Shown here: one piece after another, positions 43,082 to 44,877 of the stretch
How the letters are laid out: each line of letters opens with the position of its first letter
Numbering within the stretch: position 1 is the stretch's first letter
Assembly (NCBI RefSeq): GCF_001045465.1
Contig: NZ_LFND01000003.1
Span: 744,001 to 808,000 of the forward strand
From: Chryseobacterium angstadtii
GTDB taxonomy: Bacteria > Bacteroidota > Bacteroidia > Flavobacteriales > Weeksellaceae
Direction: 5' to 3'
DNA length: 64,000 bases
Translations under genes and position numbers: made by a program
Notes under the pieces: generated by a model
What the model was told of the DNA's origin: nothing
Database searches by the model: none
What the model saw: the letters and a program-made list of their open reading frames with translations, nothing else

Positions 43082-43759
43082 ATGAAAAAACTTAGTGTAA
43101 TTGCGTTAGTAGGAATAGGATTGCTTGCGGCATCATGTAGTAAAGAGAAATCGGCAGAGACTGCTGCTACAGCTACGGAACAGAAAGTAGCAGAAAGCAA
43201 AGGAGAAGTTTTAGCAGTTGATGTAGCTACTTCTGTAGTGAACTGGAAAGCTTTCCATAAAGGAGGAATGGCTCCTCGTTGGGGAACACTTAACGTAAAG
43301 TCAGGAGATCTGAGCATTGAAGGAGGTCAGCTGGCTGCCGGAAACTTCGTAATTGATATGAATTCAATTAAAGTAGATCCAGCTTCAGTAACAGAAAAAG
43401 ATAAAAAACCTGGAGATCTTGAAGCGCACTTAAAAAATCCTGATTTCTTTGATACAACAAAGAACCCAACTTCAGATTTCAAAATTACAAGTGTTACCGA
43501 TTTGAAAGAAGCACCTAAAGATGCAGTAGCCGGAGCTAATAAAACTGTGAGCGGAAACCTTACATTATCAGGAAAAACAATGAACGTAACGTTCCCTGCT
43601 AAAGTGGATGTAACAGATAATTCAGCGGCTGTTCAGGCTAAATTCACAGTAAACAGAGCAGATTGGGGACTTAAGTTTGGGACTTCAGAAGCAGATCCTG
43701 CAGAATGGATGATCAGCAAAGACATTGAAATTGCTGTTGATGTAAAAGCTAAAAAATAA
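43082..43759 (+). CDS. YceI-like lipocalin-fold lipoprotein
   Basis: 225 residues. A lipobox (LLAASCSKE, Cys19) predicts lipid anchoring. After an Ala/Thr/Glu linker, residues 50-225 form the YceI beta-barrel: VVNWKAFHKGG, NFVIDMNSIKVDP, LEAHLKNPDFFDT, NPTSDFKITS, VSGNLTLSGKTMNVTFPAKV, and FTVNRADWGLKFG. YceI proteins bind polyisoprenoids or similar lipids in the periplasm. It has its own promoter and a strong terminator. Confidence 0.92.
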   Translation: MKKLSVIALVGIGLLAASCSKEKSAETAATATEQKVAESKGEVLAVDVATSVVNWKAFHKGGMAPRWGTLNVKSGDLSIEGGQLAAGNFVIDMNSIKVDPASVTEKDKKPGDLEAHLKNPDFFDTTKNPTSDFKITSVTDLKEAPKDAVAGANKTVSGNLTLSGKTMNVTFPAKVDVTDNSAAVQAKFTVNRADWGLKFGTSEADPAEWMISKDIEIAVDVKAKK

Positions 43760-43860: not shown

Positions 43861-43995
43861 AAGGTGGCTTCGAGAGCCTCAGCCACCTTTTGGTGGGTAG
43901 TTGTGATGTTTTTTTAATTAATAAAATTGAGAAGTAAAAAGATAACTTTTAAATCAAAAGGCGAATAGTAGGTGGCTGAGGCTCTCGAAGCCACC
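43861..43995. repeat. REP-like hairpin doublet, copy 1
   Basis: Two 25-nt units in inverted orientation: GGTGGCTTCGAGAGCCTCAG with its end AGCCACC (43863-43887), and its reverse complement (43971-43995). They are joined by an 83-nt A/T-rich linker. Each unit alone has GGTGGCT/AGCCACC arms. It lies 36 nt upstream of the GIY-YIG gene. Confidence 0.9.
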
Positions 43996-44031
43996 GCATC
44001 AAAAAACATCTTATATTTATAAAAACACAAT

Positions 44032-44337
44032 ATGAAAAACGAAATTAAAGGCTGGATGTATATTTTGCTGTGCTCTGATGGCAGTTATTATACAGGAAGC
44101 ACAAATGATCTCGAAAGAAGAATTGAGCAGCATCAAGCAGGAAATGGTTCGAATCATACGAAGAAACGATTACCCGTAAAACTTATTTATTTTGAAGAAT
44201 ATGATAGAATAGATCTGGCTTTCTACAGAGAAAAGCAGATTCAGGGGTGGAGCCGAAAGAAAAAGGAAGCTTTGATTAATGGTGAGCCAGAATTACTGCC
44301 CGAACTGGCGATTGCATGTAGAGATTTGAGGGATTAG
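44032..44337 (+). CDS. GIY-YIG single-domain nuclease
   Basis: 101 residues, all one GIY-YIG domain: MYILLCSDGSYYTGSTND (the GIY and YIG strands), LERRIEQHQAG with the conserved Arg, and FYREKQIQGWSRKKKEALI with the metal-binding Glu. Stand-alone domains of this type cut or process DNA structures; most have no known role. It has no fused partner. It is bracketed by two copies of a hairpin doublet (43861-43995 and 44463-44595), with a degenerate unit at 44368, which suggests a functional link like that between REP sequences and RAYT transposases. Confidence 0.92.
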   Translation: MKNEIKGWMYILLCSDGSYYTGSTNDLERRIEQHQAGNGSNHTKKRLPVKLIYFEEYDRIDLAFYREKQIQGWSRKKKEALINGEPELLPELAIACRDLRD

Positions 44338-44367
44338 TAATGGTGGATTTGAGAATGGAGAGCTGCA

Positions 44368-44392
44368 GGTGGCTGAGGTTTCCGAAGCTACA
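44368..44392 (-). repeat. Degenerate REP-like unit
   Basis: GGTGGCTGAGGTTTCCGAAG and CTACA match the inverted unit at 43971 with several changes. It stands alone, 30 nt after the GIY-YIG stop. Confidence 0.7.
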
Positions 44393-44462
44393 TTTTTTTG
44401 AATAATTTTGATGTGTTTTTGATTAATGAGTAGAAGTACTTATTAAATTGAACAAGAAATAG

Positions 44463-44595
44463 AAGGTGGCTTCGAGAGCCTCAGCCACCTTTTGTGGGTA
44501 GTTGTGATATTTTTTAACTAATAAAATTAGAAGTAAAAAGACATCTTTTTAAATCAAAAGGCAAATACAAGGTGGCTGAGGCTCTCGAAGCCACC
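44463..44595. repeat. REP-like hairpin doublet, copy 2
   Basis: The same doublet as copy 1: units 44465-44489 and 44571-44595 with a near-identical linker. The two copies are in the same orientation, 602 nt apart start to start, with the nuclease gene between. The second unit ends 11 nt before a -7 box at 44607. Confidence 0.9.
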
Positions 44596-44619: not shown

Positions 44620-44877
44620 ATGATATACATTTTGCTTATAATCAATCTCTTCACTTTCGTTGTTTTTGGGCTGGATAAAAGGTTGGCGGTTAAACACAAA
44701 AGGAGAGTTCCGGAAATCACGCTTTTAGGTCTTACTCTTACAGGAGGAAGTGTGGGAGCCGCTTTAGGGATGCTGATATTCAGACATAAAGTTTCAAAAG
44801 TATCTTTTTTATTAAAATGGGTGGCGATTATTTTAATTCAGGCGGCAGGTATTTATTTTTTTGAAAAATATAGGTGA
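44620..44877 (+). CDS. DUF1294 family membrane protein
   Basis: 85 residues from ATG 44620. A longer frame from GTG 44572 would translate the REP-like unit and is rejected. TM1 is YILLIINLFTFVVFG, then LDKRLAVKHKRRVPEITLL, the DUF1294 signature, followed by GGSVGAALGMLIFRHKVSK and a last TM (WVAIILIQAAGIYFF). Inner membrane; no assigned role. Confidence 0.85.
   Translation: MIYILLIINLFTFVVFGLDKRLAVKHKRRVPEITLLGLTLTGGSVGAALGMLIFRHKVSKVSFLLKWVAIILIQAAGIYFFEKYR

What the first reader, a model, noticed from the sequence alone, without database searches (positions are those of the whole stretch)
43861..44595. GIY-YIG nuclease gene bracketed by two REP-like hairpin doublets: candidate RAYT-like system
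Seen: the 101-residue stand-alone GIY-YIG gene sits between two near-identical elements of 133-135 bp. Each element is an inverted pair of 25-nt units with GGTGGCT/AGCCACC arms, and a fifth, degenerate unit lies just after the gene. Known: in gamma-proteobacteria, REP palindromes in inverted pairs (BIMEs) accompany and are spread by RAYT transposases. Inference: here a GIY-YIG nuclease may recognise, cut or propagate the hairpins, or the doublets may mobilise the gene. I do not know of an established function for such a pair. This is my best candidate for an undescribed system in the window.
Basis: partly seen in the sequence, partly recalled or inferred. Interest (0 to 1): 0.72.

Follow-up and report, generated by a model that had tools for sequence, protein, structure and literature searches.

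The report
Nuclease gene nested in its hairpins
A small DNA-cutting enzyme gene sits among copies of a short bulged hairpin that is also scattered between other genes, and relatives of the gene in distantly related bacteria sit beside hairpins of the same design, so the enzyme very probably recognises them.

Summary
A 101-residue stand-alone GIY-YIG gene (44032-44337) lies between two inverted doublets of a 25-nt hairpin, with a fifth, degraded unit behind it. The genome (genus Chryseobacterium) holds about 85 such units; 67 of 71 read in context lie between genes.

The pairing is general. All 20 Chryseobacterium loci of this subtype have the hairpin core within 500 bp, at about 80 times background density. 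Of 80 named loci (Bacteroidota and other phyla), 71 have one design: any self-complementary arm, a 2-nt TC bulge, a GA:TC pair, a loop, the closing arm. Seven control bulges give 0 or 1 of 80. Loop type follows the protein tree, and two nuclease subtypes each track their own repeat, not the other's.

Units also occur in 32 of 128 genomes without this subtype, fewer and more decayed. At this site 12 loci lack the gene; 5 keep a clear one-unit remnant, as if the gene had been deleted between units.

Best reading: an Ssn-like, hairpin-recognising nuclease with its cognate repeats (Ssn is recalled; its paper is not held). It resembles RAYT/REP in layout but is not RAYT. Cleavage, and spreading of the repeats, are untested.

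The parts
44032..44337 (+). stand-alone GIY-YIG nuclease gene, 101 aa (subtype S1); invariant Y10, Y20, G22, R30, H34, E67
   Evidence: AlphaFold2 model pLDDT 91.6, nearest solved folds UPF0213 1zg2 and 1ywl
43863..43887 (+). hairpin unit 1 (7-bp stem, 2-nt TC bulge, GAG:CTC, 3-nt loop)
43971..43995 (-). hairpin unit 2, inverted partner of unit 1
43863..43995 (.). upstream inverted doublet (133 bp)
   Evidence: 26-bp perfect inverted repeat across the doublet
44368..44392 (-). degenerate fifth unit just after the gene
   Evidence: the scan scores it 2 mismatches from the consensus
44465..44489 (+). hairpin unit 3
44571..44595 (-). hairpin unit 4, inverted partner of unit 3, 24 bp before the next start codon
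44465..44595 (.). downstream inverted doublet (131 bp), spacer alignable with the upstream one
43082..43759 (+). YceI-family gene, left border of the site (context)
   Evidence: left neighbour at most occupied and empty sites read
44620..44877 (+). DUF1294 gene, right border of the site (context)
   Evidence: one search lists a longer ORF from 44572, the start at 44620 is my choice

Best explanation
The gene encodes a small structure- and sequence-specific GIY-YIG endonuclease. Its substrate is the hairpin that these units form when the DNA is single-stranded (replication, repair, or DNA taken up by the cell), recognised by the TC bulge and the adjoining GA:TC pair, while the outer arms and the loop may vary. 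Shown by computation: the gene-hairpin pairing, the shared design, arm covariation, loop type following the protein tree, dispersal of units in intergenic DNA, fewer and more decayed units in genomes without the gene, and one-unit remnants at some gene-free sites. Inferred: that the protein binds and nicks the folded unit. Inferred further: that breaks at units are repaired from other copies, which keeps units alike, occasionally copies them to new places, and lets the gene enter by homologous recombination at units and leave by deletion between them. This is how the recalled Ssn/NTS pair of Neisseria is described at the biochemical level (site-specific single-strand cleavage, effect on transformation); here it would be a branch, mostly in Bacteroidota, with a bulged hairpin.
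For: Core within 500 bp in 20 of 20 S1 and 24 of 26 S2 loci, 80-fold over background in S1. Design test with any arm sequence: S1 17 of 20, S2 23 of 26, S3 14 of 14 loci, other bulges 0-1. Same test on 80 named loci fetched afterwards: 71 of 80, 3.22 against 0.08 per kb, other bulges 0-1; leaving out 10 loci already seen under other names, 63 of 70; outside Chryseobacterium by title, 62 of 67. Arms pair far above shuffles at the first arm position. Loop type needs 10 changes on the protein tree against 22.8 shuffled, 0 of 500 as low. Crossed control over 148 genomes: S2-type units track the S2 gene (37 of 40 against 44 of 108, p 1e-9) but not the S1 gene (p 0.85), and S1 units do not track the S2 gene (p 0.49). 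GIY-YIG residues invariant. Unit folds with the 2-nt bulge. Copy number and intactness track the gene. One-unit remnants at 5 of 12 gene-free sites. Fold also resembles Slx1, a branched-DNA nuclease.
Against: No binding or cleavage data. 32 of 128 genomes without this subtype have units, up to 27 copies, so units persist without the gene. 11 of 27 S1-like loci elsewhere in the phylum lack the strict core, though most show variants by eye. Nine of 80 named loci fail the design test, although a looser core motif is present in all nine. Five of 12 gene-free sites show no remnant by the test (L145, L149, L154, L158, L162). An S2 stretch that I folded (L051) did not form the bulged hairpin and was no more stable than shuffles. 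Genome counts are not independent (related species; the copies beside the gene are included). The Ssn paper is not held, so the parallel rests on recall.
Confidence: 0.62

Rival explanations
1. RAYT analogue in the strict sense: the nuclease excises and re-inserts hairpin doublets (REPINs) and so mobilises them as non-autonomous elements.
For: Inverted +- pairs are the commonest arrangement (16 of 29 neighbour pairs within 250 bp, 14 of the 16 at 70-120 bp); some doublets share their spacer (7 of 171 pairs above the null maximum, 19 above its 95% point where 8.6 are expected); unit number tracks the gene.
Against: Spacers of the 19 doublets compared are mostly unrelated, and the strongest match is the window's own two doublets. 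21 of 42 places hold a single unit. At the one site examined the remnants fit deletion between units, not insertion of a doublet.
Confidence: 0.18
2. Passive nesting: the hairpins are ordinary intergenic repeats (terminators or recombination hot spots) into which the gene was repeatedly carried; the protein does not recognise them.
For: 67 of 71 units are intergenic and convergent spaces are over-represented (24 of these 67 units against 30 of 164 spaces; units in one place are not independent), as for terminators; the gene occurs at several unrelated places.
Against: The same bulged design accompanies the gene in 71 of 80 loci labelled as several phyla, where the hosts' other repeats should differ; the repeat changes with the nuclease subtype inside one genus and each of two unit types tracks its own subtype only; loop type follows the protein tree.
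Confidence: 0.1
3. Self-regulation: hairpins in the nuclease transcript are cut by the enzyme to control its own expression; dispersed copies are by-products or further regulated genes.
For: In three subtypes the nearest downstream unit usually has the same orientation relative to the gene (S1 14 of 16, S2 16 of 19, S3 10 of 11); in several S2 loci the protein's C-terminus reads GFDSAQPD, which matches a translation of the repeat (read by eye).
Against: Upstream and dispersed copies occur in both orientations, also in divergent spaces; no RNA-acting member of this family is known to me (recall).
Confidence: 0.08

Closest known systems
Ssn / NTS (GIY-YIG site-specific single-strand nuclease of Neisseria meningitidis and homologues; recalled, Nat Commun 2025, paper not held)
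   Same: Small stand-alone COG2827-type GIY-YIG protein with a dispersed repeat as cognate site; thousands of homologues with their own cognate sequences (all recalled). Here: copies hugging the gene and scattered in the genome.
   Different: Here the unit has a conserved 2-nt TC bulge and GA:TC pair with freely varying arms, occurs in BIME-like inverted doublets, and the gene seems to be lost by deletion between units. Four of six S4b loci (L135-L137, L139) have a repeat GTCATTCCG[T/C]AGGAATC that resembles NTS as I recall it. Homology to the Neisseria protein was not tested, and I cannot say which of these points the paper already covers.
RAYT / REP, BIME, REPIN systems of gammaproteobacteria (recalled; one passage on rayt and BIMEs seen in PMC9465073)
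   Same: Nuclease gene flanked by intergenic bulged palindromes often in inverted pairs; one repeat family per nuclease clade; copies persist after gene loss (RAYT side recalled).
   Different: Catalytic domain is GIY-YIG, not Y1 tyrosine transposase; little evidence of transposed doublets.
UPF0213 proteins (1zg2 BH0048, 1ywl EF2693)
   Same: Same family by sequence (E 2e-14, 8e-13) and best structural matches.
   Different: Those entries are structural-genomics targets, named hypothetical in the sequence table; I did not look for repeats beside their genes.
Slx1 (Slx1-Slx4 structure-specific nuclease)
   Same: GIY-YIG fold that acts on branched DNA (entry titles; fold name recalled).
   Different: Works with the partner Slx4 (entry titles); no cognate repeat that I know of (recall).

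Membership tests
Ssn nuclease family | stand-alone about 100-residue COG2827-type GIY-YIG protein with intact active site | tested here: met
   (COG label and the naming of active-site residues recalled)
Ssn nuclease family | cognate repeat in many genomic copies and next to the gene | tested here: met
   85 copies, 20 of 20 S1 loci in the genus, 71 of 80 named loci; that the repeat is the cognate site is inferred
Ssn nuclease family | sequence homology to Neisseria meningitidis Ssn | not tested
Ssn nuclease family | site-specific cleavage of single-stranded DNA; effect on natural transformation | not testable with these tools
   needs purified protein and a competent strain
RAYT / REP system | Y1 (HUH) tyrosine transposase domain in the associated gene | tested here: not met
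   only PF01541 found; the two Y1_Tnp loci of the genome have no units
RAYT / REP system | intergenic bulged palindromes, often inverted doublets, flanking the gene | tested here: met
RAYT / REP system | doublets move as units (REPINs) | tested here: inconclusive
   7 of 171 spacer pairs alike above the null maximum, 19 above its 95% point (8.6 expected)
GIY-YIG homing endonuclease | gene inside an intron, intein or interrupted cognate site | tested here: not met
   free-standing intergenic gene with intact units on both sides

The most novel reading that the evidence does not exclude
A self-spreading nuclease-hairpin system on an unrelated catalytic fold, convergent with RAYT/REP: a GIY-YIG enzyme reads only a TC bulge and a GA:TC pair, so that its repeats may change their arms freely. 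It propagates and homogenises its own recognition hairpins by break repair and crosses phyla together with them.
Probability: 0.3. Interest if true: 0.85.

Novelty: new variant of a known kind. Interest (0 to 1): 0.62.

Why it matters
It gives a likely owner for a class of intergenic palindromes (CTTCGA-N-CTCAG cores) in Bacteroidota and apparently other phyla, and a compact recognition rule (TC bulge, GA:TC pair, free arms) that can be tested with one protein and a few oligonucleotides. If the enzyme cuts single-stranded hairpins, it is a candidate modulator of DNA uptake and of genome rearrangement, and subtypes S1 to S4 would be a ready set of site-specific single-strand cutters with different repeat partners.

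Tried and rejected
Y1 transposase as the owner of the repeats: two PF01797 matches in the genome, one below the cut-off, no unit near either. Other GIY-YIG genes of the same genome: three further matches, two inside open frames of 600 and 729 aa; the third (L010, open frame 127 aa) has no core copy. Core motif near subtypes S3 and S4: 0 of 14 and 0 of 20; most of these have other repeats beside them. Plasmid and phage collections: 5 and 23 records, all under 60% identity, so no sign there of a plasmid or phage vehicle for S1. Literature: ten searches; no listed title or abstract start deals with GIY-YIG nucleases and extragenic palindromes. Only listings were seen, except PMC9465073, of which I saw four passages: it lists a RayT and a GIY-YIG gene as separate clade markers of Moraxella. 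The Ssn paper is recalled and not held. The S4a rule was read off the same loci on which it was counted.

Rows dropped or partial: the stretches are 80 of the matches listed (all 20 S1; 26 of 42 S2 rows, and 14 S3 and 20 S4 rows picked by hand; one S2 row, L100, looks like a broken S1-type gene). S1 'carriers' include genomes in which the gene looks broken (G126, G012, and a stop in G048). In one search four carriers whose repeats have other arms (G018, G032, G044, G048; intact-arm fraction 0 to 0.09) and genomes with fewer than 7 units were left out; with those four put back the difference would shrink (not recomputed). Only the 30 best of the DUF1294 loci (138 of 148 genomes have a match) were read for empty sites: 5 with an open gene, 3 with a broken one, 12 counted as empty, one (L169) without the gene but with 0.5 kb between the neighbours, 9 without the YceI neighbour or the gene. 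The pattern misses the 26-nt unit variant. One search compared 16 +- and 3 of 5 -+ doublets. One search read three genes on the wrong strand (L066, L074, L078); those rows were not used. Remnants at the site were first read by eye as 8 of 12; the test leaves 5 clear and 2 weak (p about 0.01).

Full report
Observation. The window holds a 101-residue GIY-YIG gene at 44032-44337 between two inverted doublets of a 25-nt unit (133 and 131 bp) and one degraded unit behind the gene. As single-stranded DNA one unit folds into a 7-bp stem, a 2-nt TC bulge, three more pairs and a 3-nt loop (-6.9 kcal/mol; z -3.3 and -2.7 on the two strands), and the degraded unit folds weakly (-2.5, z -0.75).

Genome. 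The window lies in a 5.2-Mb genome; named relatives with the nearest genes are Chryseobacterium. The unit consensus occurs 85 times with up to 3 mismatches, the reversed control 0 times. Of 71 units read in context at 42 places, 46 are exact; 67 lie between genes, 2 inside predicted ORFs and 2 at an edge of the stretch, in DNA that is 84% ORF. Neighbouring units within 250 bp are most often an inverted +- pair (16 of 29), mostly at 70-120 bp. Spacers of the 19 doublets compared are mostly unrelated: 7 of 171 pairs exceed the null maximum and 19 its 95% point (8.6 expected); the window's two doublets are the strongest match. So mainly the unit, not the doublet, is what is kept alike.

Pairing with the nuclease in the genus. 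A search of 148 Chryseobacterium genomes gave this subtype (S1) in 20. I fetched 18-kb stretches for all 20 S1 matches (one, L077, lies on a 5.4-kb contig) and for 60 more distant matches (S2 26, S3 14, S4 20). The core CTTCG[AG]-N3-5-CTCAG lies within 500 bp in 20 of 20 S1 and 24 of 26 S2 loci; 13 and 18 have it on both sides. In S1 the density is 6.8 per kb within 250 bp and 0.085 per kb at 4-9 kb, while three scrambled motifs give almost none. S3 and S4 loci have no such core near the gene, but de novo repeat search shows other inverted repeats hugging most of those genes.

One design. Asking only for a perfect 5-bp arm of any sequence, then TC, GA, a loop of 3-26, TC and the closing arm, hits S1 17 of 20, S2 23 of 26, S3 14 of 14 and S4 1 of 20 loci; replacing TC by seven other dinucleotides gives 0 or 1 locus each, and replacing the GA:TC pair gives 0-2. 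Fourteen S4 loci (S4a) share a related design, with TC next to both arms (14 of 14, other dinucleotides 0-2; rule derived on the same loci). The other six (S4b) do not; in four of them (L135-L137, L139) the repeat is GTCATTCCG[T/C]AGGAATC, which resembles the Neisseria repeat as I recall it. Arms pair far above shuffled partners at the first position: 0.95, 0.98 and 0.85 in S1, S2 and phylum-wide S1-like loci, against shuffled maxima of 0.76, 0.69 and 0.48; further out the S1 arms hardly vary, so positions 2 and 3 say little there. Pairing is thus kept while sequence changes. An S2 stretch folded alone (L051) did not show the bulged hairpin.

Beyond the genus. Among 395 genomes of the phylum 187 have a match at E 1e-8. 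Of 27 S1-like loci outside the genus 16 have the strict core within 500 bp, and most of the others show variants by eye. By record title 13 are Chryseobacterium. Others are Flavobacterium, Aquimarina, Kordia, Bacteroidales, and one or two loci each labelled Ignavibacteriales or Ignavibacterium, Anaerolineales, Leptospiraceae, Melainabacteria, Calditrichaeota, Chitinispirillaceae and Ca. Kuenenia (all metagenome bins, so labels may be wrong) and the isolate Desulfobotulus alkaliphilus. The design test, fixed beforehand, hits 71 of 80 (3.22 per kb near, 0.08 per kb beyond 1 kb); the seven control bulges hit 0 or 1 of 80. Ten of the 80 are loci I had already seen under G handles; without them it is 63 of 70, and outside Chryseobacterium 62 of 67. 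With a looser core, 80 of 81 loci (window included) have one within 500 bp. A Sphingomonas plasmid relative (50.6% identity) has two core copies just upstream and one inside the 3' end of the gene; a Methylobacterium one has none by this test.

Co-divergence. On a tree of 81 S1 proteins (few columns, many unresolved forks) two loop types need 10 changes against a shuffled mean of 22.8, 0 of 500 as low; 13 loci hold both types and were labelled by majority, ties to the first type. Chryseobacterium proteins fall in separate parts of the tree, and one starred cluster of 13 rows, including C. taeanense and C. mucoviscidosis, has only the second label. This fits joint horizontal movement of gene and repeat type.

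Copies with and without the gene. With the exact-arm pattern, 20 carriers have a mean of 11.2 units (16 of 20 above zero; at least some of the zeros have a 26-nt variant that the pattern cannot match), 128 non-carriers a mean of 1.5 (32 above zero, maximum 27; p 8.6e-8). As a crossed control, an S2-type unit is found in 37 of 40 genomes with an S2 gene and in 44 of 108 without (means 3.4 and 1.1, p 1e-9), does not track the S1 gene (p 0.85), and S1 units do not track the S2 gene (p 0.49). Copies beside the gene are counted in, and related genomes count separately, so these p-values overstate the case. The intact-arm fraction is 0.46-0.83 in 10 carriers and 0.12-0.64 in 22 non-carriers (p 0.0036); four carriers with other arms were left out of that.

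The site. Among the 30 best DUF1294 loci, five have the open nuclease gene (one without the YceI neighbour), three a broken one, and 12 have YceI and DUF1294 with no gene between; the other ten lack the gene and either the YceI neighbour (9) or a short spacer (L169). The 12 empty spacers are 67-161 bp; five keep a clear single-unit remnant (p about 0.001 each), two a weak one (p about 0.01), five none. One also seems to keep the gene's leader sequence (L143, by eye). The S1 gene also occurs at several other places with different neighbours, and in L072 it is inverted relative to the same neighbours. Deletion and inversion between units explain this best; that is inference.

Mechanism and placement. 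The protein belongs to the UPF0213-type GIY-YIG family, with Y10, Y20, R30, H34 and E67 invariant in S1 and across the S1-S4 rows aligned. A nuclease that reads the bulged hairpin in single-stranded DNA is the simplest account; this step is inferred. It matches the recalled Ssn/NTS pair in kind, so I file it as a probable Ssn-like variant, not as a RAYT system; how much of this the Ssn paper already covers I could not check. Whether the repeats spread actively, or only persist and are homogenised, is open.

Noticed in passing
L080-L105 (subtype S2 loci), e.g. L081-L084: In several S2 genes the protein's C-terminus reads GFDSAQPD, which matches a translation of the hairpin repeat itself, so the repeat seems to form the gene's 3' end (read by eye). 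The Sphingomonas relative L317 likewise has a core copy inside its 3' end.
   Followed up: no
L106-L119 (S3) and L120-L139 (S4): Two further GIY-YIG subtypes in the same genus sit among other repeats: S3 with ACTTCTCGATAC..ACTCGAAGTGACG, S4a with ATTCTTCA..TTCAGAAT, four of six S4b loci with GTCATTCCG[T/C]AGGAATC.
   Followed up: partly
G000 contig C4 143909-144179 (L293): Three exact units in the same orientation at exactly 82-bp spacing, followed 82 bp on by an inverted one: a small tandem array.
   Followed up: no
G000 contigs C1 and C9: Units look unevenly spread: 3 exact-arm units listed on the 1.2-Mb contig C1, 6 on the 0.11-Mb contig C9. Position relative to the replication terminus was not examined.
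   Followed up: no
L072 (G138:C2): The nuclease gene lies between the same neighbours as in the window but in the opposite orientation, as after inversion between inverted units.
   Followed up: partly
L317, Sphingomonas parapaucimobilis plasmid NZ_CP155752.1: An alphaproteobacterial GIY-YIG gene with CTTCGACTTCGCTCAG core copies just upstream and at its 3' end, close to nrdR.
   Followed up: partly
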